Shown piece by piece: positions 5,176-29,010 of a stretch of 64,000 nt of DNA. Origin of the DNA: Candidatus Avelusimicrobium pullarium. GTDB taxonomy: Bacteria; Elusimicrobiota; Elusimicrobia; Elusimicrobiales; Elusimicrobiaceae. The position numbers were made by a program, and so were the translations under genes. The notes beneath the pieces were generated by a model. The model saw only the letters and a program-made list of their open reading frames with translations. It was not told the DNA's origin and made no database searches. Numbering within the stretch: the first letter of the stretch is position 1; each line of letters begins with the position of its first letter. The stretch is taken from assembly GCA_944323745.1 (NCBI GenBank), contig CALUTQ010000002.1:310001-374000 (forward strand), given 5' to 3'.

Positions 5176-5204
5176 ATTATAGCATAATTTGTTAGTTTTG
5201 TCAA
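5176..5204 (-). promoter_or_regulatory. Consensus sigma70 promoter for portal-head operon
   Basis: On the minus strand TTGACA (5199-5204) and TATAAT (5176-5181) are separated by exactly 17 bp, with TGC just before the -10. It shares TTGACAAAAC and TGCTATAAT with the promoter at 7441-7469. It lies in an AT-rich gap after TerL and would start the portal, Bbp19-like, scaffold, capsid and cement transcript with a long leader. Confidence 0.85.
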
Positions 5205-7440: not shown

Positions 7441-7469
7441 ATTATAGCAAATTATAGTTGTTTTGTCAA
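7441..7469 (-). promoter_or_regulatory. Consensus sigma70 promoter for terminase genes
   Basis: On the minus strand TTGACA (7464-7469) and TATAAT (7441-7446) are exactly 17 bp apart, with TTTGC directly before the -10. It stands at the right border of the phage gene block and points into terS-terL. The 175 bp from here to the next gene hold nothing else that I can support. Confidence 0.87.
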
Positions 7470-13862: not shown

Positions 13863-15593
13863 TTATTCGTCGGTAGTGATATTCAAAATTTCTTCTACGG
13901 TTGTTAAGCCTTTTACTACTTTTCTCCAGCCGTTGCCGCGCAGGTTTAAAGCACCGGTGCGGTCCATTGCTTTTCTCATTTCAATCAAATCTTGCGTTTT
14001 GTAAATAATGTTGCGCACTTCTTCGTTGATTCTGTACACTTCGTAAATAGCGCGCCGGCCTAAAAAACCCGTGCCCACACATTTGGGGCAGCCCACGGCT
14101 TTATAAAAAGTCCACGTATTTACTTCTCTGGGGTTAAAGCGGCCTTCTTTTAAAATTTTGGTAATCGTGGCCGGGTCGGGCTGATAAGGCACTTTGCAAT
14201 ACGGACACAATACACGCACCAAGCGCTGCGCGGCCACCAATGCCAAAGAGCTGGAAAGCAGGAAAGGCTCCATCCCCATATCAATCAAACGGGGAATGGC
14301 GCCCAACGCGTCGTTGGTGTGCAGCGTAGAAAGCACCAAGTGACCGGTTAAAGCGGCTTTCAGGCAGGCTTCGGCAGTTTCGTTATCGCGCACCTCCCCC
14401 ACCAGAATAACGTCCGGGTCCTGACGCAGGAAGGAACGCAGCCCCGCGGCGAAGGTTAACCCGATTTGCGGTTTGACCTGCACCTGGCTGATACCGGCCA
14501 GTTTATATTCCACCGGGTCTTCCAACGTCATAAAGTTTAACTCCGGCGTACGAATAGTGGTCAGCACCGCGTTAAGCGTGGTAGATTTACCCGAACCGGT
14601 AGGCCCCGTCAAGAAAATCAGCCCGTGAGGCAGGTGGGAGGCTTCCAAGAATGCTTTCTTTTGTTCAGGTTCAAAACCCAGTTTATCCACGTTCATTTCG
14701 CCGGTGCCGCGGTCCAAAATACGAAGCACCAGCTTTTCGCCGTATACGGCGGGGCACACAGACACACGGACTTCAATGGTACGGTTCTGATATTTGATAC
14801 TGAAGCTTCCGTCCTGCGGCAAACGTTTTTCGGCAATATCCAATTTAGACAAAATTTTAATACGGGAAATAATGGCCGCCACGGAATCTTTATTTGGCGG
14901 AGTACGTTCATACAGAGAACCGTCAATACGGAAACGCAAGCTGACGCGTTCGTCAAACATTTCCAAGTGAATATCAGACGTACGTTCGGAAATAGCCTGT
15001 TTTAAAATGGCGTTTACCAGCTTAATGTACTGCGAACTGTTGGCCGAAGATTTATCCAAGTCCAAGCTGCCGGCTTCAATTTGCACGTCTTCGTCGTTGG
15101 CGGTAACGGCATCTTTGGAAGCACCCGTTTCATTGACCACTTCATCCAACAAGTTTTTATGGCCGTAAAAGCTGTCCACCACGGCCAAAATTTGGCTCTT
15201 GCTGGCAATAAAAGGCTGCACCTCTTTGCCGGCCATCATACGGATATTATCAATCAAAAACAGGTTGGAAGGGTCATAAAGCGCCACTGCCAGTTCGTTA
15301 TCTTCAATAAACAAAGGAACTACTAAATTTTCACGGGCAAATTTTTCGGGAATAATCTTTTGCAAATTTTGTTCCCGTTCCGGAATTAAAATACCGTTTT
15401 CTTTGGAAGCGTAAGGGAGAGAAAAATGTTTTGCCAAGGCGGCCGTTACCTGTTCTTCCGTAGCAAAGCCAAACAACACCACGGCTTCCGCCAAGGTGGT
15501 ATTATTTTGACGTGCATACAATTCCGCCCTTTTTAGTTGTTCTTGGGTCAGCGTTCCTTGCTCTACTAAAATTTCGCTTAATTCTTTTGCCAT
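13863..15593 (-). CDS. pilB: Pilus extension ATPase PilB/GspE
   Basis: 576 aa. Residues 1-145 form an MshEN/GspE-type N-terminal domain (SEILVEQGTLTQEQL pattern). Residues 190-290 form the N2 domain with SDIHLE. The Walker A is GPTGSGKST at about 330-338, followed by an Asp box, Walker B (DPDVILVGEVRD) and His box. A zinc-binding four-Cys site (CPYC near 455, CPKC near 500) is intact. It powers pilin polymerisation from the cytoplasm. Start ATG at 15593 has AAGGAAAG upstream; the longer frame was rejected. No pilT-like retraction ATPase is in the window. Confidence 0.94.
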   Translation of the reverse strand: MAKELSEILVEQGTLTQEQLKRAELYARQNNTTLAEAVVLFGFATEEQVTAALAKHFSLPYASKENGILIPEREQNLQKIIPEKFARENLVVPLFIEDNELAVALYDPSNLFLIDNIRMMAGKEVQPFIASKSQILAVVDSFYGHKNLLDEVVNETGASKDAVTANDEDVQIEAGSLDLDKSSANSSQYIKLVNAILKQAISERTSDIHLEMFDERVSLRFRIDGSLYERTPPNKDSVAAIISRIKILSKLDIAEKRLPQDGSFSIKYQNRTIEVRVSVCPAVYGEKLVLRILDRGTGEMNVDKLGFEPEQKKAFLEASHLPHGLIFLTGPTGSGKSTTLNAVLTTIRTPELNFMTLEDPVEYKLAGISQVQVKPQIGLTFAAGLRSFLRQDPDVILVGEVRDNETAEACLKAALTGHLVLSTLHTNDALGAIPRLIDMGMEPFLLSSSLALVAAQRLVRVLCPYCKVPYQPDPATITKILKEGRFNPREVNTWTFYKAVGCPKCVGTGFLGRRAIYEVYRINEEVRNIIYKTQDLIEMRKAMDRTGALNLRGNGWRKVVKGLTTVEEILNITTDE

Positions 15594-15632
15594 TTTGCTT
15601 TCCTTTACACTCTCATCCAATGCCCTTTTGCC

Positions 15633-15663
15633 GCTTGCCCCCTTTGAAAGAAAGGGGGCAAGC
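15633..15663 (-). other. 13-bp perfect hairpin between secretin and pilB
   Basis: Stem GCTTGCCCCCTTT/AAAGGGGGCAAGC with a 5-nt loop in the 97-bp gap. There is no T-run after it on the minus strand, so it is more likely an mRNA-stability or partial-attenuation element inside the pilus operon than a terminator. Confidence 0.6.
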
Positions 15664-15690
15664 TAAAAACATTACGGCACGCCCGCTTCT

Positions 15691-17283
15691 TTATTCCGCC
15701 AAAATCGTCGGCGTGATAAAGATGACTAAGTCTGTCGTATTTTTAGAAGTGCTGCGGCTGGTAAACAACCATCCCAATATGGGGATATCACCCAAAAGGG
15801 GCACTTTGCGGGTTTGATCCGTCTCACGGGAAGTGAGCAAACCGCCGATGACCACCGTCTGCCCGTTTTTCACGCGCACCAGCGTAGAAGCGGCGCGGGT
15901 GGTGGTATCTTTGGTGTTATCAAAGCCGGAGCTGACCAAGTCAGAATAAGACGGCTGGACGTACAGCGTTACATACCCTTCGCGGTTTACCTGCGGGGTA
16001 ACCTGCAAGGTCAACCCTACACGTTTTCTTTCCGCGCCGGCCACCGTTAAGGTGTTGTCGCCGCCGCCGGACTGGGACTGCGTAAAACCGACGGTCGCGT
16101 CCGTAGAGGTGGTAATCGTAGCCGTTTTATTGTTCAAGGTAACCACTTTGGGTTTACCTAAGTATTTGGCTTCACCGCGGGTCAGCAAGCTCTTGAGAAT
16201 AATTTGGAATGCGGAAAAGTCCAGCACGCCGCCTTCACTTTCGTTTTCGCTGGAAGAAGAAGACGAGCTGCTGCTGCCGGAAGAGCCCGTGCCGGTATCG
16301 TTCAAATCGTCATTGCTGGGGAAGATCCAGTCCCAGCCGTGCAATTTATTGCCGGTGGTGCCATAGCCGCGCATAAAGTCAGAGGTTACTTCACGTTTCG
16401 GCCCCGTGAAGGACACCAACGTACCGTCCGTGCCGCCATATTCAAAACCAATGGTTAAACCGCTGGTTTTGCTGACTTCCACAATTTGCGCTTCAATCAG
16501 AATCTGGGGCGGTTTAATATCCAGCTCGGCCAGAATATTTTCAATCTGCGGGAAAACTTCCGGCACATCGGTTACGATTAATTTATTGGTTCTGGGGTCC
16601 ACCGCAATGCGGCCCACAGGAGAAAGCATACTTTTCACGATGCCGATAATTTCAGCCGTACCGGAATAAGCATCTCCGCCGGAGTTCAAAGAGCTTCCGG
16701 TCCCCCCCAGCCCCGTATCGGAGTAAGAAGAAGACGAGTAGCTGTTGCCTAAGCTAGAACCCGTGGTAGACACATCCTGCGGCATAATGCTGTTAAGCTC
16801 GCTGGACGGAGAGCCGATAGCCTGCAGGGAAATATAGCTAAGGGTATAAATTTTGGTAATCGTATCCGGCGCGTCGTTAGAACGTTTGGTCACGACATAG
16901 CTGTCGCTTTTGCCGATGCGCTGATAGGTCAAACCGTGCACCCGCAGCAACGTATCCAACGCTTCGCGGACCGTCACTTTCGTAAGCGAAGCCGTCACCT
17001 TTTTATTGGCAAATTCTTCGCTCATAATAAAGTTAATACCGGCCTGAGTCGTAATACTGTTTAAAAAGGCCGCTATAGGCACGTTAGACACGCGAATGGA
17101 CACCTTGCGGTCCAACGGCGAAGATACTTCAGCCTCTTTATACAGTTCAGGTTCACCGGACAACTTTATGGTTTCCTCAGCCATAATGGTGGTAGCTTCC
17201 GCCACGGCATTTTGTGCCGCAACGGGCACGGCCGGCGTGGCTGCCATCAACAAAGCCAGAAAAACTCCTAACCGATGTTTCAT
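15691..17283 (-). CDS. pilQ: Outer-membrane secretin PilQ/GspD-like
   Basis: 530 aa with a signal peptide ending near VAAQ. An STN/N0-type domain covers residues 60-135 (VSIRVSNVPIAAFLNSITTQ, VTVREALDTLLRVHGL). An N1-like domain (TNKLIVTDVPEVFPQIENIL) follows, and then the beta-rich secretin domain, ending VPLLGDIPILGWLF and DLVIFITPTIL. No AMIN domains, so it is shorter than PilQ of proteobacteria. Two Ser/Gly-rich insertions are odd: one around residues 170-200 and a run of nine consecutive Ser residues in the middle. It forms the outer-membrane channel for the fibre. SD AGGAGG precedes the ATG. Confidence 0.92.
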   Translation of the reverse strand: MKHRLGVFLALLMAATPAVPVAAQNAVAEATTIMAEETIKLSGEPELYKEAEVSSPLDRKVSIRVSNVPIAAFLNSITTQAGINFIMSEEFANKKVTASLTKVTVREALDTLLRVHGLTYQRIGKSDSYVVTKRSNDAPDTITKIYTLSYISLQAIGSPSSELNSIMPQDVSTTGSSLGNSYSSSSYSDTGLGGTGSSLNSGGDAYSGTAEIIGIVKSMLSPVGRIAVDPRTNKLIVTDVPEVFPQIENILAELDIKPPQILIEAQIVEVSKTSGLTIGFEYGGTDGTLVSFTGPKREVTSDFMRGYGTTGNKLHGWDWIFPSNDDLNDTGTGSSGSSSSSSSSSENESEGGVLDFSAFQIILKSLLTRGEAKYLGKPKVVTLNNKTATITTSTDATVGFTQSQSGGGDNTLTVAGAERKRVGLTLQVTPQVNREGYVTLYVQPSYSDLVSSGFDNTKDTTTRAASTLVRVKNGQTVVIGGLLTSRETDQTRKVPLLGDIPILGWLFTSRSTSKNTTDLVIFITPTILAE

Positions 17284-17314
17284 CTATCCTCCTGTGTGTA
17301 AACAACAAATGATT

Positions 17315-18229
17315 TTACTGCAAGTCTACTTTCTTTGTAAACTGTTGACCTTTATACGTAAATACAACTGATTCCGGCAAAACTTTTACGATGCGCGCCC
17401 CATACACGCTTTTGCCCACCGTATAAATGCGATTGCCGATAAAAACTTCCTGCCCGATAATACCGCTTACGCGAATTTTGCCGCGCACTTCGCGGGACGG
17501 GTCACGCAAGCGTTCCAGCTCCAGCTGGCGCTGACGTTCCAACTCAGCCAGACGGCGTCTTTCTTCCGCCAATTTGCGCTGACGTTCCGCCTCTAAAGCA
17601 CGAAGGCGTTCTTCTTCGCGGTGTTTTAACAGCAATGTATCATCCGGCGAAAGCGTCGGGTCACGATCCGTTGGCGGATTATATTGCACCAACTTTTGCG
17701 GAGCAGGTACTTTACTCACAATGCCGGCGGCCGTTTGGGAGGCCAAGGTTTGTGCTTGCGGAAGCGCAGGCGCAGCGGCATTGGCAGTCGGCGCACCCTG
17801 CGTCGGCGCAGACGTTGCCGGTGCAGCCGGAGCGGCAGCCACACTGGCTACTTCAGCCGGCGGTACCGCCGCGGCAACAGGCTGTATCTGCTGCTGCGGA
17901 ATTAAATTTTCCACGGCAATTTCTTCCGTATTTACTTTGGTAACCGTATTAGTTACCGGCGGAACATTTTTTTTGGAAGCTGCCGCCGTCTTTTTGGCGG
18001 CCGTCTTGGCCGCAGTCGTTTTTTTGACCGTATTTTTTTTGACGGACGTCGTCTTCTTTTGCGTTGTCGCAGCCACGGCCGGTTTAGCCGGTGCGGCAGC
18101 GGGTGCCGGTTGTTCGCTTTCGGCGGGCAAATTCAAATCAGGCAATGCCGGCGCCAAGTCCGAAGCAGCCCACACGGTGGAACAAACACACAAGGTTGCC
18201 AAAACCCCTAATAAATAGCGTTTGTTCAT
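17315..18229 (-). CDS. pilP: PilP-like alignment-complex protein
   Basis: 304 aa with a signal peptide (MNKRYLLGVLATLCVCSTVWA). A Lys/Ala/Thr-rich disordered region covers residues 30-200, then a charged coiled segment (LKHREEERLRALEAERQRK) and a C-terminal beta domain (VRGKIRVSGIIGQEVFIGNR to KVDLQ). The last part resembles the HR/PilP fold that docks to the secretin. It lies between pilO and the secretin, overlapping pilO by 4 bp. The N-terminal half is longer than in known PilP and has no visible lipobox. The assignment rests mainly on position and the C-terminal fold pattern. Confidence 0.72.
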   Translation of the reverse strand: MNKRYLLGVLATLCVCSTVWAASDLAPALPDLNLPAESEQPAPAAAPAKPAVAATTQKKTTSVKKNTVKKTTAAKTAAKKTAAASKKNVPPVTNTVTKVNTEEIAVENLIPQQQIQPVAAAVPPAEVASVAAAPAAPATSAPTQGAPTANAAAPALPQAQTLASQTAAGIVSKVPAPQKLVQYNPPTDRDPTLSPDDTLLLKHREEERLRALEAERQRKLAEERRRLAELERQRQLELERLRDPSREVRGKIRVSGIIGQEVFIGNRIYTVGKSVYGARIVKVLPESVVFTYKGQQFTKKVDLQ

Positions 18230-18852
18230 TTCTTTCCCCCTGCAGCATCTTTGAACATTGTGGCGGCTATTTTTTCTTTGGGGAAAATCGTATTAATACG
18301 CATAGTAATTTCGTTTTGTCCCAAATTTTCCGACTTTTTCGTCAAAGAAAAGTCCGAGATGCGCAAATATTCTTGTTTATTTTCAATACTGGCCAGCAAA
18401 CGCCCGAAATCGCCAAACGAAGTTTGGAAAGTAACGGGAATGGCCGCCAGCGTAAAGCCTGCGTTACTGCTGTCTTCCGCCTGGGAAGCCCCTAACGTCG
18501 GCGAAATATTGGCGTCGCGGAACACGGCTACCAATTGCCGCAGCAGCCAATCGTTTTTGGAAGACAAATCAGGAAAGCGCGGTTCCAGATCCAGTAATTT
18601 TTGTTTATTGGCCTGGTAGTCCTTTTCATTATCATACTGTGCTTGTACGGCGTCAATTTGTCCGCGCAAATTGTTCGCCTTAGCTTGGAAAGTGCCGTTT
18701 ACGTAACGGTATAACAGAATGATAACAATTACCGCTACAATTTGTTTTAAAAACAATTTGTAATTGCCTTCCTCCATCACCAGCTTCATATCGTTAAACC
18801 CTTTTTTGGCAGATTCAACGTACTTGTTAGGCGTTTTAAACGAGGTCTTCAT
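18226..18852 (-). CDS. pilO: PilO-like inner-membrane alignment protein
   Basis: 208 aa. A cytoplasmic N-terminus is followed by one membrane helix at about residues 35-52 (LKQIVAVIVIILLYRYV). A coiled coil (FQAKANNLRGQIDAVQAQYDN) follows, and a periplasmic ferredoxin-like domain including VTFQTSFGDFGRLLASIEN. The FGDFGRLLASIE pattern is typical of PilO. It pairs with the PilN part of the upstream fusion. Start and stop overlap both neighbours by 4 bp (ATGA), so translation is coupled. Confidence 0.88.
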   Translation of the reverse strand: MKTSFKTPNKYVESAKKGFNDMKLVMEEGNYKLFLKQIVAVIVIILLYRYVNGTFQAKANNLRGQIDAVQAQYDNEKDYQANKQKLLDLEPRFPDLSSKNDWLLRQLVAVFRDANISPTLGASQAEDSSNAGFTLAAIPVTFQTSFGDFGRLLASIENKQEYLRISDFSLTKKSENLGQNEITMRINTIFPKEKIAATMFKDAAGGKK

Positions 18853-20459
18853 CTCACCGTACCTCCTTTAGAGCAGGTAAACGTGAACGAGGTTTGCATA
18901 CCGGTGTTGGAATCCACCCGCGGGTCTTTTGTCTTTCCGTCTCCGGCAAGTTCTTTATATTTAATTTCCGCTTTAGAGCCGCACAGCTGTTTAATGGCCG
19001 GCTGCTGCACAAGCTGGTCGTAAAACTGTTTACCTAATACCAGGTCCTGCTCGGAATTACCCGTTTTAATAAACCCTTCAAACGAGAAGGAACGGACATC
19101 GCCGCTCTTGGCAGGGAATTCCTCTCTATACGATAAAGAGGATATCCACATTTGCTCGGGGATAACCGTTACCAAATCTACTAAAAGCGGGGTAATTTCA
19201 TTCTTGGCCATAAACTTGCTCAAATTGGCATTTTGCGTTTTAATCTTATTCAAATTGCTCTCAATTTGAGAAGCCGTCAGGCCGTCAAAATCTGCTATGG
19301 TAATAGCATTTTGGCTTTTGGCTTTTTTCAAAGCACGGCTTTCGGACTGAACGCCCCACCATCCTTTGATCATTAACAACAAGACAATTACCAAAGCCAC
19401 GCCGGCCAGTTTCCAAGCCATCAGACCGGCATTAAACTCGTAATCACTTAAGCGGTTGCGCTTAATAAAATCCAAGTCCGGACTTTTTTCATCATAAAAC
19501 TTAATACTGGCACCAATGGCGGCGATTTCTCCGGCGGATTTGGTTTCTATGCCATACACCTCGCTCAAATTCCATCTGCGCACCGGCTTTTTGGAATCGG
19601 CTTCCAGCAAAGGCTGCCAGTTGTCTATATCGCACCCCATAATGACGGCTTCGTCAAAGGGATCTTTTTCCAATTGTTTGGCAATAAATTCCGTGCAATT
19701 GGTTATTTCAAAACGACGGCGCTCCACCGGCGAAGAACCGAACACTTCCACCTCGCGCAAAAGCACGGGGGCATTATGATTGGTAAACACAAAGCTGGCC
19801 AGATCTTTGCCGAAGAAAGAATAAATGCGGCCGGTGTCGTCCACGGCTTCCTTATCGCTGTCGCTAAAAGCACGGCTTAAAGAAAGCGGCGAAGGCTCTA
19901 TGGCTACCGGGTCAAGCCCTACGCTTCTAAGCCCTTTTTCCAGACGTTCCACCACCGTTTTCGGCGTCATTGTAAAAATAACGCCCAAACGTTTTTGCTT
20001 GGTGGCCGCCGTTTCAAATTCATATACATAATAAGAATACATTGTTTTTTCAAACGGGAAATGGATGTATTTTCTCGCTTGCAGAGGGATGGCCTCTTTC
20101 CAATGTTTTCTTTCAATCATCGTAGGGATGACAAAATGACGCAACAACGAAAAGGCGGGGGCTAAAGACACGACCACTTTATTGCCGTCCCATTTCTTTT
20201 TGGCAGCGACTTTAGTCAATGCCTCCAGCCAATTATTTTCGGTAAAAAAGCCTTCATTAAGCTCCAATGGTTTGAGCTTGCTGGGATCCACGTCAGAGAT
20301 AGGCACGCGCAGCAGGGACTCCAACACAATACCGCCGTCCTTGCGGGAGCTTTGCGCAATGTACATTTCATTCAGCCCGATATAAAGCCCCAAAGCATCG
20401 GGGTGGGCTTTCATATTTTTGCCTATCAGCGTGTCGGCCAGATTGATAGATTTATTCAT
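18849..20459 (-). CDS. PilM-PilN fusion protein
   Basis: 536 aa. Residues about 20-330 are an actin-like PilM domain (ALGLYIGLNEMYIAQ, VVVSLAPAFSLLRHFVIPTM, KYIHFPFEK). Its usual free cytoplasmic form is here joined to a membrane helix at about 347-372 (GLMAWKLAGVALVIVLLLMI), a coiled coil and a PilN-like periplasmic domain (DLVTVIPEQMWISSLSYREE, FSFEGFIKTGNSEQD). In most bacteria PilM and PilN are separate and PilM binds a short N-terminal peptide of PilN. A GspL-like layout (actin fold, helix, periplasmic domain) is the closest known analogue. SD AAGGA precedes the ATG. Confidence 0.85.
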   Translation of the reverse strand: MNKSINLADTLIGKNMKAHPDALGLYIGLNEMYIAQSSRKDGGIVLESLLRVPISDVDPSKLKPLELNEGFFTENNWLEALTKVAAKKKWDGNKVVVSLAPAFSLLRHFVIPTMIERKHWKEAIPLQARKYIHFPFEKTMYSYYVYEFETAATKQKRLGVIFTMTPKTVVERLEKGLRSVGLDPVAIEPSPLSLSRAFSDSDKEAVDDTGRIYSFFGKDLASFVFTNHNAPVLLREVEVFGSSPVERRRFEITNCTEFIAKQLEKDPFDEAVIMGCDIDNWQPLLEADSKKPVRRWNLSEVYGIETKSAGEIAAIGASIKFYDEKSPDLDFIKRNRLSDYEFNAGLMAWKLAGVALVIVLLLMIKGWWGVQSESRALKKAKSQNAITIADFDGLTASQIESNLNKIKTQNANLSKFMAKNEITPLLVDLVTVIPEQMWISSLSYREEFPAKSGDVRSFSFEGFIKTGNSEQDLVLGKQFYDQLVQQPAIKQLCGSKAEIKYKELAGDGKTKDPRVDSNTGMQTSFTFTCSKGGTVR

Positions 20460-20481: not shown

Positions 20482-22401
20482 TTAATTGCCATATTCTTCG
20501 TAAGGCATATCGTAAGGGTTGGTCACTCCTTGGGCGGGAGCGGCCGCCTGACCCTGCGGCTGCGTATACGTTTGTACGCCCGTGCCCTGCTGGGTAGCAT
20601 ACGGGTTGCTTACGCCCGTACCCTGCTGGGTAGCATACGGGTTGCTTACGCCCGTACCCTGCTGGGTGGCATAGGGGTTGCTTACGCCCGTACCCGGCTG
20701 GGTGGCATACGGGTTGCTCACACCGGTGCCCTGCGCGGCATACGGATCTGTCATTTGCGCGCCATAAGCGGCATAGGGATCCGTCACGCCGGAGTTCTGC
20801 ACGGCATAGGCATTAGCCGCATCCGTAGCGGGAACGGTGGCGGCAAAAGGATCCGTCACTTCCGGCGCGGCTGCTGCGGCCGGCGCGGCTTTCATAATGC
20901 GGGCCGGTTTATTCCACAGGCGGGCCGTTTTGTAATTTAACGAGGAATCTTCTTTGGCGGCCGTTGTTTTTTCAGCCGGTTTTTGGCTGGTGCAGGCCAC
21001 TTCAATTTGGCGGCGGATGGTGCGTTTACCGCCCATTACGTCTCTGGCCGTTAAAGCCAGCGTGTAGGTTCCGCAAGCCAATTCAGGCCCGATGATGCCT
21101 TTGCGTCCGTTCCAGACAATCTGGTGATAGACAGGGGCAAAGCCTTCCAGCTGGCGCACGACATAATAGCCGCCGTTGGCTGCGTGCTGCACCACTTGGA
21201 ACAGCCAGTTATCCAAGGTTTCGGCTGTTTCAATAACGGAAAAATCAATGGCAAACGCTTCGCCGGCGGCCGGGTCAATTTCGTTGCTCACGGGTACAAC
21301 GGCCATACTCAGCATCGGCAGTTTAGAAACAGAAGCCGCTTGCGGCATAGAAGCGGGCAAGTCCGCATCAAAATCAAACACAATAGAGACACCGTCTAAA
21401 TTGGCAAATTTGGCAGGCGGTTCCTGGTCAAACAACCCCATATTGTAGCTGATTTTGCCGGAGGACAAGCCTTTGTGCACCAAGAAAGAGTTCAACGCCA
21501 TAGCCTGACGGATGCCGGCCAAGGTGATGTTGTCGGTATAAGAACCCGGCGGCAAAATGATGTAGCTGGCACCTTGCGTTAAGGCCAGCAGGGTATAAAT
21601 TTCGTCCAGCACCGGCAAGGCTTCGGGGCGGAATTTGTAGCCGTTAAAAAGGACGTCGCTGTCAATGTCAATAGCATCGGGCAAGCCGTCGCGGAAATAC
21701 ATACGGACGCCTTGTTCTTTTTTAAGTTGGGCAATAACGGCTTGTTTCATACTGTCCAGTTTTTGGCTCGTATAAATTTGGCGGGCTTTTAAGGCCGACG
21801 GGGTAGATAAGTCCGTAAACGTAGAAGACGATGCTTCCTGCGTTTTAGCGGCTTCTGCGTCAACAGAAGGCTGCTGGGCAGCCAAAGCACTTTCTTGCGC
21901 CTGCTGCTGCAGCAACGCCTGCTGTTCTTGCACGGCCTGCTGGGCGGCGGCATTTTCGGCCGCTTCCTGCTGCGTCATAGCCGCTATGTCCTGTTCGGCC
22001 GTTTCGGTCAAACCGACGCCGGCCAACTCTTGTCCAATAGGGGCATTTTCAGCGGCCATTTGCGCTTCCAATACGGCAGGGTCCTGCCCCGGCTGCAAGC
22101 GTTTGGCTTCGCCCTCTTTAAAATTAATATCCACTTCCACCGGGTCTTGAATGCCGCCCATACGGTTGTGAATTAAATTAATATACTTATTGGCCTCGTC
22201 CACTTCAGTACGGGAACCGTTGACCAGCACATCAATGAAATAATCCATTGCTTCGCTGTCACGGTTTTCTTCGTACAGCTCGATGCCTTTTTCCAGTTGC
22301 TTGGCCGAGGACGGCGCAGCAAACAAGGCGCTGCCGCCCGTCAAAGACAGGACCAGCAACGCAACCAAAATTTTCACTTTCATCGCGTTTAACATTCTCA
22401 T
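20482..22401 (-). CDS. TPR/OmpA-like envelope protein with NPYAT repeats
   Basis: 639 aa, first gene of the pilus operon. A signal peptide (MRMLNAMKVKILVALLVLSL) leads into a helical repeat (LEKGIELYEENRDSEAMDYF), then Gln/Ala-rich linkers. A central domain (residues ~210-330) resembles an OmpA-type peptidoglycan-binding module (FKPEALPVLDEIY-like: FRPEALPVLDEIYTLLAL). Then comes a possible carbohydrate- or protein-binding beta domain with VVRQLEGFAPVYHQIVW. The C-terminus holds four 12-residue repeats of GTGVSNPYATQ type. Function is not known. By position it could anchor or pilot the secretin to peptidoglycan. The ATG at 22401 gives the best signal peptide; the nearest purine-rich site (AAGGGG) is rather far. 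Confidence 0.7.
   Translation of the reverse strand: MRMLNAMKVKILVALLVLSLTGGSALFAAPSSAKQLEKGIELYEENRDSEAMDYFIDVLVNGSRTEVDEANKYINLIHNRMGGIQDPVEVDINFKEGEAKRLQPGQDPAVLEAQMAAENAPIGQELAGVGLTETAEQDIAAMTQQEAAENAAAQQAVQEQQALLQQQAQESALAAQQPSVDAEAAKTQEASSSTFTDLSTPSALKARQIYTSQKLDSMKQAVIAQLKKEQGVRMYFRDGLPDAIDIDSDVLFNGYKFRPEALPVLDEIYTLLALTQGASYIILPPGSYTDNITLAGIRQAMALNSFLVHKGLSSGKISYNMGLFDQEPPAKFANLDGVSIVFDFDADLPASMPQAASVSKLPMLSMAVVPVSNEIDPAAGEAFAIDFSVIETAETLDNWLFQVVQHAANGGYYVVRQLEGFAPVYHQIVWNGRKGIIGPELACGTYTLALTARDVMGGKRTIRRQIEVACTSQKPAEKTTAAKEDSSLNYKTARLWNKPARIMKAAPAAAAAPEVTDPFAATVPATDAANAYAVQNSGVTDPYAAYGAQMTDPYAAQGTGVSNPYATQPGTGVSNPYATQQGTGVSNPYATQQGTGVSNPYATQQGTGVQTYTQPQGQAAAPAQGVTNPYDMPYEEYGN
20585..20728. 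repeat. Four 36-bp in-frame tandem repeats
   Basis: About four copies of a 36-bp unit coding for 12 residues (pattern GTGVSNPYATQQ on the minus strand). Copies differ at a few bases, mostly silent. The surrounding code contains weaker relatives (DPYAA segments). Such coding arrays can change copy number by slippage. Confidence 0.9.
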
Positions 22402-22447
22402 AGACTTGTTATTGCCCCTTGTGTTTAATTGGCACAACCCACAGATA

Positions 22448-22624: not shown

Positions 22625-25228
22625 TTATTTTTCCAGCTTTTTGAGACGGTTTGCCGCCGTCCGGTTGGCCGGATAATAAAACAATGCATTGTGCAAATAA
22701 TAGGCAGCAGCCTGCACATCTTCCGCCTGCTGTAACAACGAGGCTAAGGCCAAATTGGCCGACAAATTATCCGGCTTTTTGGCAAGCACCGCCTCCAAAA
22801 GTTCCTTGGACTTAATGTCGTTTCCCGTCAAAGCAAAGTAGCGCGCCAGCAAAATAAGGCCGTTGGAATCGGACGGATATTTTTTAACATATTCCTCCAA
22901 CCGGCTGCGCAACTGTTTGAGCTTGTGCTTGGACATTCCCTGCATATTTTGCACCTGGTCATAATAGCCCTGCAGCGTTTGCGCCTGCGTTAAAATTTCC
23001 GGTTTTTCTTCGTCAGAAGCATACAATTTTACCAAACTGCGGCGGATGGACTTGTCCAGCGTGTCAATCGTAAGTGCATTTTTATACACCGTTTTGGCGT
23101 ATTCTTTTTCGCCGTGTTTTAAATAAATGCCTCCCACGGCGTGCCACAAACCGGCGTCATACGGAAACAGCTGCAAGCCTTTTTCCAACAAAGACATTGT
23201 ATCGGCATCGGCATAAATTACGTCTTCCTGCACCAAGGAGGCCAACGTTTCATAAGCGGCTAAATTAAAAGGATCCAAACGCAGGGTTTCGCGCAAATAA
23301 CGCACGGCTTTGGCGTGGTCGTTTTCCCCCAGTGCCGCCAACGCCGCGTGATAATAAACCTGATCATAATAGGCCGCGGCGGACATCGCTTTTTCGTACA
23401 CGGGCAGTGCCTGATCGTATTTTTGTTCGGACAGTAATAAATTGCCCAGGGTAAAGCCGGCCTCCGTATTAGCCGGATAGAGCGAAAACGCCTTGGCAAA
23501 ATCGGCCTGTGCCGCAGCACTGTTTTTACGCGCCAGCTGCTTTTGCCCGCGGAAGAAAAGATACTGGCTGGAAAGCACCGCCCCCTGCCATAAAACAACA
23601 AATACACAACCGCCCAGCAAGGCTAAAGCTACCGTTTTGGTTACAGGGTTGGCCGTAATTTCCACACTGCGTTCTTCGCGCCCGACGCCGCTTACTTCGG
23701 CCCCGACCAGCCACCAAAACACAAAAGCCGGCACCACCGTATGCAGCGAAATATTGAGCATATTGTCGGTCAGCATCGCCAAGATGCCGCAGAACAAGGC
23801 CTGCAGTAATTGTTTTTTATCCCCCTCTTTTTTGCGGGCGGCAAAATCGTGCACTTCCAAAAACAGCACCATAAACATAAACAGAAAAAGCCCCAACCCC
23901 ACAATGCCGCCTTGCGCCAACTGAAAGAAAAACTCGTTATGCGGCGACTGGGTAAGCGTTTTTAATTCGCGTAAATTGGGATGTTCCAGCAGGGTTTTTG
24001 GCTGCGTGCGGGCAAACGAAGTTTGAAAATTGCCCAGCCCGGCCCCCATCACGGGGCGGTTTAAAAAGATGTCTTTGGATACATTCCACATCAAAAGACG
24101 CTGGTGCAGCGACGGAAAAATTTGTTTCCGCGGCACCTGCAGCGTAAAAGAGGAAGGCGTCACTTTGCTTATTTCACCCACCCGCTGTTCCAAAGCGGGG
24201 CGCGTGCTTTGCACAAACACCGGCAAATACGACACCGCCACCCCCAACACCACCAGCCAAAACACGCGGGCCTTGCGCTGCAAAATAAGCGCGCGCAACG
24301 TGCCGAACATCCACATCATCAGCAGGCCCACCAGGGCCGCTATCCAGCACGAACGGCACAGCCCCGACGACAAATAAAACAAATACACCAACACCAAAAA
24401 GCCGTATACACCAATGTCTTTACGGCTGGAAGCGCGCATATAATACACCAAAAGCGCCGGCAAAAGCATTACCACAAACGAAGACAAAAAGTTGGGGTTG
24501 CCAAACGTGGAAAAGGCCTTGCTGGCAAATTGCTGCATATCAAACGGCCACAAAATATCCAACCCGAAACTTTGAAACACCCCGTACATACACGCCAGTG
24601 CGCACGCCACAAAACTGAGCACCAGCACGTTTTCCTGCGTCAGTTTACGCAGCACGCGCATTCCCAGCCACAGCCCGACGCCCCACAAAATAATGCCGTA
24701 TATGTCAAACACGCAGGCAAAAAAGCTGTCCCCCGGCAGCGAAGTTTTAAGCAAAGGCAGCAGCAGCCACAAGGCTCCCCAGGCGATAAAAAGCAAAATA
24801 TAATTGGTTTTGCTTTCTATCACGCCGCTGAACACCACATTTTTGCTGATGACATAAGCCCCCAGCGCCACCACCAAAAGCAGGGTGCCGAAGTCCAACA
24901 TATTAAAAAACAACGTCTGACGCATATACTGCGGGGCGGCCGACACGGCCGAAAGCCAGCTGACCACACAGGCAAAGATGTAAATCAAAAAAGCCAAGTC
25001 AAAAAACGTGCGCGTAAAGTTAATGTGTCCCGCACGCAAAAAGCGAATGGCCGAAGCGCCGTACATCGCCGCCAGCAGCACATAAAGCAACACGCTTTGC
25101 ACGGTAAAAGGGTTGCGGGTCAAACCGGTAAAAAACAACAGAGGTACCGCCAGAAAACAGGCAGAAAGTAACAAACGCATTACTTTGACGTATTTGCCTT
25201 CGGCGGAAGATTTGGTAACAGGAAACAT
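22625..25228 (-). CDS. O-antigen-ligase-like membrane protein with C-terminal TPRs
   Basis: 867 aa. About twelve membrane helices cover residues 20-550 and carry Wzy_C/WaaL-type marks: FGNPNFLSSFVVMLLPAL, HQRLLMWNVSKDIF followed by MGAGLGNFQ, and SPHNEFFFQLAQGGIVG. These proteins transfer lipid-linked sugars onto lipid A core or, in PglL/PilO-type members, onto pilins. Residues ~570-860 form about seven TPR-like repeats (AGFTLGNLLLSEQKYDQALP, YYHAALAALGENDHAKAVRY). Position next to the pilus operon makes a pilin O-glycosyltransferase possible; an LPS ligase or polymerase is equally possible. The ATG at 25228 has GGAG six bases upstream; an upstream TTG was rejected. Confidence 0.75.
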   Translation of the reverse strand: MFPVTKSSAEGKYVKVMRLLLSACFLAVPLLFFTGLTRNPFTVQSVLLYVLLAAMYGASAIRFLRAGHINFTRTFFDLAFLIYIFACVVSWLSAVSAAPQYMRQTLFFNMLDFGTLLLVVALGAYVISKNVVFSGVIESKTNYILLFIAWGALWLLLPLLKTSLPGDSFFACVFDIYGIILWGVGLWLGMRVLRKLTQENVLVLSFVACALACMYGVFQSFGLDILWPFDMQQFASKAFSTFGNPNFLSSFVVMLLPALLVYYMRASSRKDIGVYGFLVLVYLFYLSSGLCRSCWIAALVGLLMMWMFGTLRALILQRKARVFWLVVLGVAVSYLPVFVQSTRPALEQRVGEISKVTPSSFTLQVPRKQIFPSLHQRLLMWNVSKDIFLNRPVMGAGLGNFQTSFARTQPKTLLEHPNLRELKTLTQSPHNEFFFQLAQGGIVGLGLFLFMFMVLFLEVHDFAARKKEGDKKQLLQALFCGILAMLTDNMLNISLHTVVPAFVFWWLVGAEVSGVGREERSVEITANPVTKTVALALLGGCVFVVLWQGAVLSSQYLFFRGQKQLARKNSAAAQADFAKAFSLYPANTEAGFTLGNLLLSEQKYDQALPVYEKAMSAAAYYDQVYYHAALAALGENDHAKAVRYLRETLRLDPFNLAAYETLASLVQEDVIYADADTMSLLEKGLQLFPYDAGLWHAVGGIYLKHGEKEYAKTVYKNALTIDTLDKSIRRSLVKLYASDEEKPEILTQAQTLQGYYDQVQNMQGMSKHKLKQLRSRLEEYVKKYPSDSNGLILLARYFALTGNDIKSKELLEAVLAKKPDNLSANLALASLLQQAEDVQAAAYYLHNALFYYPANRTAANRLKKLEK

Positions 25229-25312
25229 TTCAGGCTCCAATAAAATATAATCGTTTATATTTTAGTTTTTTTCACGTTTCCGTCAAAGTTTTTTTTAAAT
25301 TATTTGAGCCAT

Positions 25313-25365: not shown

Positions 25366-27333
25366 TCAGTTTAAATAAAACGGCGTATTTAACGCCTGCG
25401 TCAGGTTGTTCTTTTCCATTGTGTAGGCGTTTTCCATTTCCGCTTCCAGCCGGTAGGGCGGAATATCCCCCAAGGCCATTACTTTGGCGTGGAAGTCAGA
25501 CAAAGAAAACTTTTTGCCTTGTTTCTTTTGATATTTGGCGCGCAAATCTTTCAGCGCCTTATATCCGTAAATATAACTGACGGCTTCGCCGGGTTGGCGG
25601 GCAATGTCTTTAAGCATCGTTTGGGCCTGCTGTTCTGCAAAGCCGTTTTCTTGCGTTAAAAAGGCATAGGCATCATTATAGGTAAACTCTTGCGTATGCA
25701 ATTTAAAGTCCACCAAAGCCTGTGCCGCACGCACGTAATCGGCCCACGCCAAATAAAGCAGTTCTTCGTCGGTAATAATATAGCCGCGTTCGCTGGCTAA
25801 ATGCTGGGCGTACACTTCCCACCCGTTGCGCAGCGTCGGCACGGGGTACATCTTGCGGAACGAAGACAATGTTTTGCCGTTATAAGCGGAACGATAGTAC
25901 AACCCCGGCACCAACTGGCCGGCCAGCAGCAATTTAAGCGTAGGACCGTTAAAATCGCGGTTGAGCATTTCCTGACGGGTCAGTTCATTGCCGGAAGGCA
26001 GGCGCAGAAAAAGGTCGTTGGTGGGGTTGGTCTGCGTGCCGAAAGGCGGCAGGAACATATATGCGCGGGTATAGGCGTAATAGTCCGGCATTTTATAGAT
26101 AACAAAGTCCACGTCCGACGTAGGCAGCGTATCGTCCTGCGCAAAGAATTTGGCCAAATTGGCCGCTTCTTCCGACAAAGTTTTAATAAAATCCTGCTGG
26201 CGGATGTTGTTGGTCAGCAAGCGCTGCGTTACACTGTAAAACTCATCGGCGCGCACCAGCGGGGCATTTTTATCTTTCTTTTTCTTTTCCGGTTTAGTCG
26301 GCTGCTGCGCTTCATTTTCGGCCGCGGGCTGACCTTCTTCTGCCACCGGTTCAATGGAACTGACGGTTACGCCTTCGGTAGCTTCTTCGCCGGGGACTTG
26401 GATGTTTTGCAGTACGGTTTCGGCTTCCTGCGCCGCCACCGGCAAGGCAAACATCTCCAGCGCTTGGGCCAAATTCTTTTGGGCGGTGCGGAAATTTTCC
26501 GTCAGTATTTTTTCAATTTTTCTGGGTTTTTCGTCAATAAAATAACGGTTATTTAACACAAACTGGTAATCTTCTTCTCCCAAACGGAAATCCTGCTGGG
26601 TGTTTTCCTGTGCCAACGATTTAAACAATTCAAACATTTTTCTTACCGCTTCTTTGGAAGCGCGCGCATCGGCACGCACCTGCGTGCGGCTTACATCGTC
26701 CTGCGCACGGGCCGCCAAATATTGGGGCACGGTATCAAAGGCCAAATAAGCATAATAGGCGTCTTCCATCGCCAGCTGCGTTAAAAAAGCAGGCGGCGTG
26801 GTCAGGTTTTCTTCGGCTTGCTCGGCCACCCCTTTCAAGGCACGCATACGGGCCGCCAAATCGCGGTCCTGCAAATCCTGATAGTTCAGGGTTTTCATCG
26901 TTAAATCATACACCGAAGAAAACGCCTGCGCGTAAAGCAGCGGGTCCAACGCCGTACGGTTGCGTTCCAAATTCCATTTATCCATTGCCAAACGCCCCTG
27001 CAGCACATCGTAATCGGTTTGTTTGGGTTCGGAAAGATTTTTTTGCCGCACTTCCGCCAAACTTTCCTGCACAATGCCCAGTGCGCGCAGGGCCTGGGCG
27101 TCGCGCTCGGCGTCACGCCGGTCCAATTTATTGTCTGCCGATTCAAACCCTATCCGCGTGGCAAACTCAGGGAAGAAAGACAGCTGCATCGCCGAATAAC
27201 GGTTGCTTACTTCCGTCAGGGCATTATCTTCCATAATCGCGTCTATATTGTCAAAGCCGGAAAAGTCCGCCGCTTGGGCCGCCGGAGACAAAAAGAGTGA
27301 AGCACTTAAAAGTACACAAAGCAGTTTTTTCAT
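25366..27333 (-). CDS. DUF885 family secreted protein, probable pseudoenzyme
   Basis: 655 aa with a signal peptide (MKKLLCVLLSASLFLSPAAQA). The mostly helical body resembles DUF885 proteins, including NGWEVYAQHLASERGY (family form EGW..Y...L..E.G) and a C-terminal YIYGYKALKDLR segment. DUF885 members normally carry a metal-binding HExxPGHH motif. Here the aligned segment (coded at 25894-25923) reads AGQLVPGLYY, so both His positions and the Glu are gone. An insert around residues 345-400 is acidic then Lys-rich (PTKPEKKKKDKN). It is probably periplasmic and non-catalytic. The ATG at 27333 was chosen for the signal peptide and GAGG site; it ends at a strong terminator. Confidence 0.72.
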   Translation of the reverse strand: MKKLLCVLLSASLFLSPAAQAADFSGFDNIDAIMEDNALTEVSNRYSAMQLSFFPEFATRIGFESADNKLDRRDAERDAQALRALGIVQESLAEVRQKNLSEPKQTDYDVLQGRLAMDKWNLERNRTALDPLLYAQAFSSVYDLTMKTLNYQDLQDRDLAARMRALKGVAEQAEENLTTPPAFLTQLAMEDAYYAYLAFDTVPQYLAARAQDDVSRTQVRADARASKEAVRKMFELFKSLAQENTQQDFRLGEEDYQFVLNNRYFIDEKPRKIEKILTENFRTAQKNLAQALEMFALPVAAQEAETVLQNIQVPGEEATEGVTVSSIEPVAEEGQPAAENEAQQPTKPEKKKKDKNAPLVRADEFYSVTQRLLTNNIRQQDFIKTLSEEAANLAKFFAQDDTLPTSDVDFVIYKMPDYYAYTRAYMFLPPFGTQTNPTNDLFLRLPSGNELTRQEMLNRDFNGPTLKLLLAGQLVPGLYYRSAYNGKTLSSFRKMYPVPTLRNGWEVYAQHLASERGYIITDEELLYLAWADYVRAAQALVDFKLHTQEFTYNDAYAFLTQENGFAEQQAQTMLKDIARQPGEAVSYIYGYKALKDLRAKYQKKQGKKFSLSDFHAKVMALGDIPPYRLEAEMENAYTMEKNNLTQALNTPFYLN

Positions 27334-27527: not shown

Positions 27528-27600
27528 GGGCCATTAGCTCAGCTGGTAGAGCAGACGCCTCTTAAGCGTAAGGTCGTGAGTTCGAGCCTCACATGGCCCA
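27528..27600 (+). tRNA. tRNA-Lys(CUU)
   Basis: A 73-nt cloverleaf. Acceptor GGGCCAT pairs with ATGGCCC and the D-arm is GCTC...GAGC. The anticodon loop CTCTTAA carries CUU, and the T-arm GTGAG/CTCAC encloses TTCGAGC. The discriminator is A and CCA is not encoded. Confidence 0.95.
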
Positions 27601-27617
27601 TTTTTTACGACAAAATA

Positions 27618-27699
27618 GGACGGATGGCGGAATCGGCAGACGCGCACGCCTTAGGAGCGTGTGGGGTAACCCTTGAGGGTTCAAGTCCCTCTCCGTCCA
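27618..27699 (+). tRNA. tRNA-Leu(UAG)
   Basis: An 82-nt class II tRNA. Acceptor GGACGGA pairs with TCCGTCC. The anticodon stem CACGC/GCGTG has loop CTTAGGA (anticodon UAG). The long variable arm is built on GGGTAACCC and the T-arm on GAGGG/CCCTC. Discriminator A, no encoded CCA. It starts 17 bp after tRNA-Lys. Confidence 0.93.
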
Positions 27700-27720
27700 G
27701 TTATTTTAAGGAGCAGAAAA

Positions 27721-29010
27721 ATGTCCATTTTCAAAACCGCAACGGCGGAAGAAGTAAAAACCAAACAACTAAATAAAGAAGGCTGCCGCGTCAACCTCAG
27801 CGTAGAAGCATCGGCCGGCTTGATTACCAAAGCCTTTCAAAACGCCGCCGTGCAAGTGCAGTCCCGCGCGCAGATGCAAGGCTTCCGCGCCGGAAAAGTT
27901 CCCCTTGATTTAGTCAAACAAAATTTTGCCGGCCACATTAAAGAACGCGCCCTGGACTTGGCCCTCAAAAGCGCCATTGCCGCCGCATTGGAACAAGCCA
28001 AACTCAACGCCGTTACCGTGCCGTCTTTAACTAAAGCCGATTTTGCCGCCTTTAACGACGGGCAGGCTTTTTCTTTTGAACTGGCCGTGGACGTGGCCCC
28101 CGAATTTGACGTAAAAGACTACAAAGGCATTCCCGTAACCAAAAAGGCCGAAACCGCCACGGAAGAAGAAGTAAAAGACCAGCTGGAGCGCATTTTGCAG
28201 GCCAATGCCCGCTTGGAAAGCGCACCGGAAGGCACCGTGATTGACGACAAAGTATACGCCGTGGTGCAATACAAAGGCAAACGCAACGGAACGGAAGACT
28301 ATAAACTCAGCGCCGACAGCGAACTGATTGATATGGCCGCCCCGCAAACGATGCCGGAACTGGCCAAAGCCGTGCTGGGGATGAAAAAAGGCGAAAGCAA
28401 AGATTTTGAAGTTAAAGAAGGAAACGATACGCTTTCTTTCCACGTAACGGTAGACGACATCAAAAACAAAATCGTGCCGAATTTGGACGATTCCTTTGCC
28501 AAAGATATGGGCTTTGACACGCTGGACCAGCTGAAACAGCGCGTGCAGGAAGGCCTCAACGCCGAAGCCAAAGAAAACTCCGCCCGCGATTTTGTAAACC
28601 AGATTGAAAACCATCTGGTCAAAATGAACAATTTTGCCCTGCCCGAAACCTTGGTGCAGGAATATACGGATCAGTCTTTAAACAACTTTGTGCGCAACGT
28701 CACCCAACTCAAGCCCGAGCAACTTTCCGACGAACAGCGCAAAAGTTTTGAAGAACGCATCCGCCCCACGGTAGAAAAAGACTTGCGCATCGGCTACATC
28801 ATTCACGCCATTGCCAAGAAAGAAAACTTGGAAGCCACGCAGGCCGACTGGCAGGCCGAGCTGGACAAAAGCCTGACCGCCAACGCCAAAACCAAGGAAG
28901 ACGAAAAAAAGATCCGCGCTTTCTTTGAAGAACGCAAGGACCACATCCTGGCCACTTTAAACGAACGCAAGGTGTTTGACTTCCTAAAAAAAGAAGCGGT
29001 TGTAAAATAA
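27721..29010 (+). CDS. tig: Trigger factor, ribosome-associated chaperone
   Basis: 429 aa. The N-terminal ribosome-binding domain has FRAGKVPLDLVKQNF in place of the usual GFRKGKVP signature. The FKBP-like middle domain (residues ~160-240) has VDDKVYAVVQYKGK and TLSFHVTVDDIKNKIVPNLDDSFAKD. A long helical C-terminal domain ends the protein. It binds nascent chains at the ribosome exit and has prolyl isomerase activity. ATG at 27721 has AAGGAG upstream. It follows the tRNA-Leu by 21 bp and may share its transcript. Ends at a hairpin series with a terminator at 29149. Confidence 0.94.
   Translation: MSIFKTATAEEVKTKQLNKEGCRVNLSVEASAGLITKAFQNAAVQVQSRAQMQGFRAGKVPLDLVKQNFAGHIKERALDLALKSAIAAALEQAKLNAVTVPSLTKADFAAFNDGQAFSFELAVDVAPEFDVKDYKGIPVTKKAETATEEEVKDQLERILQANARLESAPEGTVIDDKVYAVVQYKGKRNGTEDYKLSADSELIDMAAPQTMPELAKAVLGMKKGESKDFEVKEGNDTLSFHVTVDDIKNKIVPNLDDSFAKDMGFDTLDQLKQRVQEGLNAEAKENSARDFVNQIENHLVKMNNFALPETLVQEYTDQSLNNFVRNVTQLKPEQLSDEQRKSFEERIRPTVEKDLRIGYIIHAIAKKENLEATQADWQAELDKSLTANAKTKEDEKKIRAFFEERKDHILATLNERKVFDFLKKEAVVK

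What the first reader, a model, noticed from the sequence alone, without database searches (positions are those of the whole stretch)
25366..27333. DUF885 protein with lost metal-site motif
The family's HExxPGHH segment aligns with AGQLVPGLYY (25894-25923), with the Pro-Gly pair kept while the His and Glu residues are replaced. The surrounding EGW..Y...L..E.G-like segment is retained. This looks like a secreted pseudoenzyme that may have taken on a binding or structural role.
Basis: partly seen in the sequence, partly recalled or inferred. Interest (0 to 1): 0.55.

Follow-up and report, generated by a model that had tools for sequence, protein, structure and literature searches.

The report
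Order-wide dead peptidase, exported, conserved
A gut bacterium carries an exported protein built like a zinc peptidase but stripped of every zinc-holding residue, and nearly all sampled members of its order carry the same dead copy under strong selection, so it has probably become a binding protein rather than a decaying gene.

Summary
The gene is on the minus strand (25366-27333, 655 aa, apparent signal peptide) and is a full-length DUF885 protein (PF05960, E=4.9e-47). The family's HExxPGH is G472-Q-L-V-P-G-L478 here, and EGW reads NGW, so the presumed third ligand is gone too. The loss is not local: 118 of 125 sampled genomes of the order carry a DUF885 gene; the motif is readable in 116 and degenerate in all 116. 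All 32 copies in 24 genomes outside the order, plus one second copy inside it, keep HExxPGH and EG[W/Y]. A tree puts the degenerate copies on one side of one branch. An intact relative sits downstream of lon, like the degenerate gene in the sister family. dN/dS is 0.035-0.205. AlphaFold (pLDDT 91) gives the DUF885 fold, next nearest M32/M3/M2 clamshell peptidases. In one family an acid-base pair repeatedly occupies the old ligand positions. Pseudoenzyme: supported. The binding role is inference: most likely an exported peptide- or protein-holding clamshell. The Lys/Glu insert is a disordered, genus-level expansion.

The parts
25366..27333 (-). gene of the degenerate DUF885 protein, 655 aa
27268..27333 (-). 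signal-peptide-like N-terminus (22 residues)
   Evidence: read; a crude scan finds an export signal of some kind in 114 of 115 order copies
25894..25923 (-). AGQLVPGLYY, the place of HExxPGHH: H->G472, E->Q473, H->L478; P476 G477 kept
25819..25827 (-). N503-G-W, the place of EGW; presumed third ligand E->N
25603..25605 (-). I577, a column that is Tyr in 88% of 24 intact copies and in 0 of 114 degenerate ones
26251..26403 (-). Glu/Lys-rich insert (residues 311-361), low confidence, variable in length, genus-level expansion
27673..29010 (+). trigger factor gene, divergent neighbour kept in most of the family
22625..25240 (-). O-antigen-ligase-like membrane protein with TPRs, next gene downstream; neighbour only in close relatives

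Best explanation
It is an exported pseudo-metallopeptidase. Shown by sequence: both motif His, the motif Glu and the EGW Glu are replaced throughout the order (two sampled families), the degenerate copies lie on one side of one branch of the tree, and the gene is under strong purifying selection. Inferred: the starting gene was an active zinc enzyme in the tig-clpP-lon neighbourhood, and the clamshell scaffold (PG kink, GW..Y helix, R493, D542, P581, G590) was kept because the protein still closes around a ligand. The likeliest job, in my view, is to hold peptides or non-native proteins in the periplasm without cutting them, buffering them or passing them to active exported peptidases; this genome has two signal-bearing M3 peptidases with intact HEFGH. 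In the window's family an acid-base pair has often taken the ligand positions, as if a salt bridge replaced the metal. How likely: not an HExxPGH zinc peptidase 0.9; single ancestral loss 0.85; peptide/protein holding as its function 0.3.
For: Family and motif loss. Spread: 118 of 125 order genomes, 24 of 169 others. All 116 order genomes readable at the motif are degenerate; 33 of 33 other copies are intact. Tree of 55 of 155 distinct rows with the motif columns removed: one change, SH-aLRT 99. Same neighbourhood: lon upstream of the degenerate gene in 22 of 23 sister-family loci, and lon - class V aminotransferase - intact DUF885 in L175. Selection: dN/dS 0.035-0.205 in 38 of the 40 closest pairs scored, two saturated in dS. 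Fold: pLDDT 91.4, pTM 0.89; the three DUF885 crystal structures at Z 30-33, then M32, M3 and M2 peptidases at Z 15-10. Acid-base pairing: 32 of 72 family rows have both and 29 neither; independent pairs 6.5 same, 0 opposite, of 12; first of 52 testable windows of the same spacing, next best 2.2. Exported M3 peptidases.
Against: No ligand, partner or phenotype is known. Residues conserved only in this clade (E56, R73, P131, Y134, D212, P446, N503) could also be a new active site; I could not place them in the model because no coordinates were available. The branch joining the intact copy L124 to the clade is weak (SH-aLRT 53), L175 is a short contig of an 82%-complete genome, and the root of the tree is not inferred; the direction of change rests on the family-wide motif. 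The acid-base test was chosen after seeing the alignment (one search is its control), and the window's own copy has the neutral form (G, Q, L). The gene changes faster than its neighbour tig (median identity 47% against 75% in 27 loci, 68% against 88% in 12). The M32/M3/M2 Z-scores are only just above what helical proteins can score by chance, by the tool's own note.
Confidence: 0.6

Rival explanations
1. A neo-enzyme: the clamshell gained a new, metal-free or differently placed active site after losing zinc, using residues conserved only in this clade.
For: Nine positions are at least 89% one residue in 114 degenerate copies and carry that residue in at most 29% of 24 intact ones: E56, R73, P131, Y134, D212, P446, N503, A539, A570.
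Against: Alignment positions alone do not show that they meet in a cleft. Only E, R, Y, D and N among them could do chemistry. No other known family was matched over its cut-off.
Confidence: 0.15
2. A regulator or subunit of an active exported peptidase (for example the M3 pair), as inactive homologues are in some metallopeptidase families.
For: Two exported M3 peptidases with HEFGH lie in this genome and two M3 genes in G034. Inactive homologues that regulate active cousins are described in a review (PMC11266112, abstract and four found passages seen).
Against: M3 was not found in G106, which has the degenerate gene. An intact DUF885 cousin was found in only 1 of 125 order genomes, so it cannot generally act on its own cousin. 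I saw no linkage between M3 and DUF885 genes.
Confidence: 0.2
3. An accessory of the ABC-2 exporter encoded next to it in the sister family, binding exported substrate.
For: ABC ATPase and permease lie downstream on the same strand in 22 of 23 sister-family loci, often overlapping or nearly touching the DUF885 gene.
Against: The arrangement is not seen in the window's genus (0 of 55 loci, not all with full flanks), and the permease was not found in G000 or G003 at E<=0.01, while the DUF885 gene stays.
Confidence: 0.1
4. A decaying gene of a reducing genome with no function.
For: Small genomes (1.1-1.8 Mb in the genus); faster change than tig.
Against: dN/dS 0.035-0.205; kept in 118 of 125 genomes; confident fold.
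Confidence: 0.02
5. The DUF885 motif is not a metal site at all, so nothing catalytic was lost.
For: None of the papers listed shows an assay in what I saw; the spacing HExxPGH differs from HExxH.
Against: Invariant in 33 of 33 intact copies; Peptidase_MA clan and a predicted His-His-Glu zinc site for one member; fold neighbours are zinc peptidases.
Confidence: 0.08

Closest known systems
DUF885 family, PF05960 (PDB 3u24, 3iuk, 3o0y)
   Same: Full-length profile match, same fold (Z 30-33), PG and GW..Y kept
   Different: No HExxPGH, no EGW Glu, Tyr of column 577 lost, own conserved residues, longer disordered insert
M32, M3 and M2 peptidases (TcMCP-1, oligoendopeptidase F, neurolysin, ACE)
   Same: Predicted clamshell helical fold, Z about 15-10
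   Different: No Pfam sequence match; no HExxH; 6-12% identity in the structural alignments listed
Described pseudo-metallopeptidases (review PMC11266112: inactive M12 ADAMs, M14 carboxypeptidases, Ebp1)
   Same: Metallopeptidase scaffold kept after loss of catalytic residues
   Different: Other folds and, in what I saw, eukaryotic; here a bacterial exported protein fixed across an order; DUF885 is not mentioned in that review

Membership tests
DUF885 / PF05960 (as a sequence family) | score over the curated cut-off over the whole domain | tested here: met
   162.2 bits against 32.4, positions 1-532 of 532
DUF885 / PF05960 (as a sequence family) | fold of the solved members | tested here: met
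   Z 33.3, 30.7, 29.7 to 3iuk, 3u24, 3o0y; Foldseek E 4.5e-19
active DUF885 peptidase | HExxPGH | tested here: not met
   GQLVPGL; 0 of 116 readable order genomes have it in this gene
active DUF885 peptidase | Glu before GW (third ligand, presumed) | tested here: not met
   N503; 0 of 119 readable distinct rows have Glu
active DUF885 peptidase | metal binding and peptide cleavage | not testable with these tools
   needs protein
Peptidase_MA clan fold (M2/M3/M32) | clamshell helical fold | tested here: inconclusive
   rows 4-50 are M32, M3 and M2 structures by title (one title, 7a03, does not say; family names partly recalled), Z 14.6-9.8; near the tool's background for helical proteins
Peptidase_M3 / M32 (as sequence families) | Pfam match | tested here: not met
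   only DUF885 matched at E<=10

The most novel reading that the evidence does not exclude
An order-wide, single-copy bacterial pseudo-metallopeptidase whose zinc site was emptied once, in place, and then repeatedly refilled by an acid-base pair, turning a clamshell peptidase into a dedicated periplasmic peptide- or protein-holding factor that even genome-reduced gut symbionts keep.
Probability: 0.3. Interest if true: 0.65.

Novelty: new variant of a known kind. Interest (0 to 1): 0.47.

Why it matters
The pseudo-metallopeptidases I found described are eukaryotic. Here one is fixed across a bacterial order, with intact relatives in the same phylum, an intact copy in a matching neighbourhood, a carrier that looks like a cultivated species (G034, a single contig of 1,643,562 bases, the size I recall for Elusimicrobium minutum) and three crystal structures of relatives. 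That makes the question of what a peptidase scaffold does after losing its metal directly testable, and would give a role to an exported protein kept by nearly all sampled Elusimicrobiales.

Tried and rejected
Recent or local loss: rejected, shared by two families. Misalignment of the motif: rejected, G477, G504 and W505 are invariant and P476 nearly so across 87 degenerate and intact rows. Regulation of an intact DUF885 cousin: such a cousin was found in 1 of 125 order genomes (G106, L142). Conserved Lys/Glu insert: rejected. Functional link to the ABC exporter in the window's genus: not supported. Function of the TPR-like gene beside the exporter: weak TPR match only, not followed. NCBIfam gave only sub-threshold matches. 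M32 peptidase in G000, G034, G106: none found. Literature (open-licence library only): DUF885 (13 papers), PF05960 (1), Elusimicrobium minutum + outer membrane (13), pseudopeptidase (29), Elusimicrobiota + peptidase (19), pseudoenzyme + bacteria + metallopeptidase + periplasm (0), Avelusimicrobium (2), Elusimicrobi + pseudoenzyme (1), DUF885 + peptidase + zinc (3): in the listings seen, none describes this protein. Papers opened: PMC12572635 (one passage, one section), PMC8478523 (passages; PF05960 there is a passing domain mention), PMC11266112 (outline, abstract, passages).

Rows dropped: identical sequences (174 loci to 155 distinct rows); L029, L047, L171 and L174 do not cover the motif. 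In the conservation count 24 of 33 intact rows were used (nine with a short match or a giant frame left out) and 114 degenerate rows (fragments and the named near-duplicates left out). The tree used 55 rows, the fold alignment 87. dN/dS was computed for 40 of 252 pairs. The 72 family rows include one named near-duplicate (L042).

Full report
The open frame is on the minus strand of 25366-27333: 655 residues from ATG, with an N-terminus that reads as a signal peptide. Pfam gives one family, DUF885 (PF05960), over the full profile at E=4.9e-47. In the alignment to the solved Shewanella protein 3u24, HEAIPGHYTQ falls on AGQLVPGLYY at 25894-25923. Both His and the Glu are gone, P-G is kept, and the EGW of the family reads NGW. 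A further column, Tyr in 88% of 24 intact copies, is Tyr in 0 of 114 degenerate copies (I577).

Spread. PF05960 was sought in 294 genomes of the phylum. Counted from its rows, 118 of 125 genomes of the window's order have a match (genus 56 of 58, rest of the family 17 of 21, sister family 45 of 46); outside the order 24 of 169. Record titles of close relatives name Elusimicrobiaceae and Candidatus Avelusimicrobium. I read loci from all 142 genomes. The motif is readable in 116 of the 118 order genomes, and in this gene none has HExxPGH or EGW; the third-ligand column in 119 readable distinct rows is N 107, H 5, Y 3, D 2, L 1, Q 1. The 33 other copies, 32 in 24 genomes outside the order and one second copy in G106 inside it, all have HExxPGH with EGW (30) or EGY (3). 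In the window's own genome one DUF885 gene was found.

History. A tree of 55 rows, motif columns removed, needs one change between the two states (SH-aLRT 99), and inside the degenerate side the two families separate. The nearest intact row is L124, but its place is weakly supported (53). Its contig (L175) reads lon - class V aminotransferase - intact DUF885, and in the sister family lon lies upstream of the degenerate gene in 22 of 23 loci, clpP in 19 and tig in 18. In the window's genus the gene lies divergent to tig in 45 of 55 loci. I read this as loss of the metal site in place, in a gene already sitting in the tig-clpP-lon neighbourhood. The direction, intact to degenerate, is inferred from the family-wide motif; the tree has no outgroup root.

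Selection and fold. Nei-Gojobori dN/dS was computed for the 40 closest of 252 pairs; 38 gave values, 0.035 to 0.205. The gene changes faster than tig but is clearly constrained. AlphaFold on an alignment of 87 window and locus sequences gave pLDDT 91.4 and pTM 0.89; below 50 are residues 19-21, 321-328 and 330-343. Foldseek and VIA-align find the three DUF885 crystal structures first. In VIA-align the next 47 rows are M32, M3 and M2 peptidases by title, except 7a03 whose title does not say. Their Z-scores of 15-10 are near the tool's helical background, so the shared fold rests as much on the consistency of the list as on the scores.

The emptied site. In the window's family the two columns of the former His-Glu and the column of the second His vary together: acid at 472/473 with Arg/Lys at 478 in 32 of 72 rows, neither in 29, acid alone in 6 (two of them with His at 478), base alone in 5. 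On the tree, 12 independent pairs differ in the base; the acid goes the same way in 6.5 on average and the opposite way in 0 (median sign-test p 0.016). Asked the other way round, 10 pairs differ in the acid and the base goes the same way in 6.5, the opposite in 0.3 (median p 0.031); with Glu at 473 alone the test is not significant (median p 0.125). Because I picked this pair after reading the alignment, I ran the same test along the protein: of 52 testable windows with that spacing it ranks first, 6.5 against 2.2 for the next. This is what a salt bridge in place of a metal would look like, but the window's own copy has the neutral version (G, Q, L), and in the sister family the acid-base form does not occur (0 of 43).

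Function. Shown: exported by sequence (an export signal of some kind in 114 of 115 rows by a crude scan), constrained, stripped of the motif, confident fold. Inferred: it still closes on a ligand. The same genome has two M3 peptidases with signal-like N-termini and HEFGH; G034 has two M3 genes and G106 none. I therefore favour peptide or protein holding in the periplasm over strict partnership with M3. In the sister family an ABC-2 exporter follows (22 of 23 loci), but this link is not seen in the window's genus. The Glu/Lys-rich insert is disordered, of variable length, and an expansion of the genus.

Novelty. Within the searches named under Tried and rejected, no listed paper describes this protein. 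Pseudo-metallopeptidases as a kind are known (PMC11266112, abstract and passages seen), so this is a new variant: a bacterial, exported, order-wide one in the DUF885 family.

Noticed in passing
L151 (G059:C5:28500-39100), domain at G059:C5:33034-34554: An intact DUF885 domain (HESYPGH, EGW) lies inside an open frame of 17,755 residues, a giant protein of unknown role in a class relative.
   Followed up: no
window 5176-5204 and 7441-7469, minus strand: Two exact sigma-70 consensus promoters (TTGACA-17-TATAAT) with similar spacers; 0.02 expected by chance.
   Followed up: no
window 13863-20459, minus strand: Genes that read like a type IV pilus assembly set (an ATPase, a secretin-like protein, two inner-membrane proteins; recalled, not searched) downstream of the DUF885 gene, and pilin-like genes elsewhere in the window.
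   Followed up: no
window 20482-22437, minus strand: A 651-aa predicted exported protein with a repeated GTGVSNPYATQQ-like C-terminal tract and no Pfam match at E<=0.01.
   Followed up: no
window 27528-27600 and 27618-27699, plus strand: tRNA-Lys(ctt) and tRNA-Leu(tag) lie between the DUF885 gene and tig; the second overlaps the start of the long tig frame.
   Followed up: no
L142 (G106:C4:31800-42400): The one order genome found with both a degenerate and an intact DUF885 copy; the intact one lies in a 795-residue frame and branches with other intact copies.
   Followed up: partly
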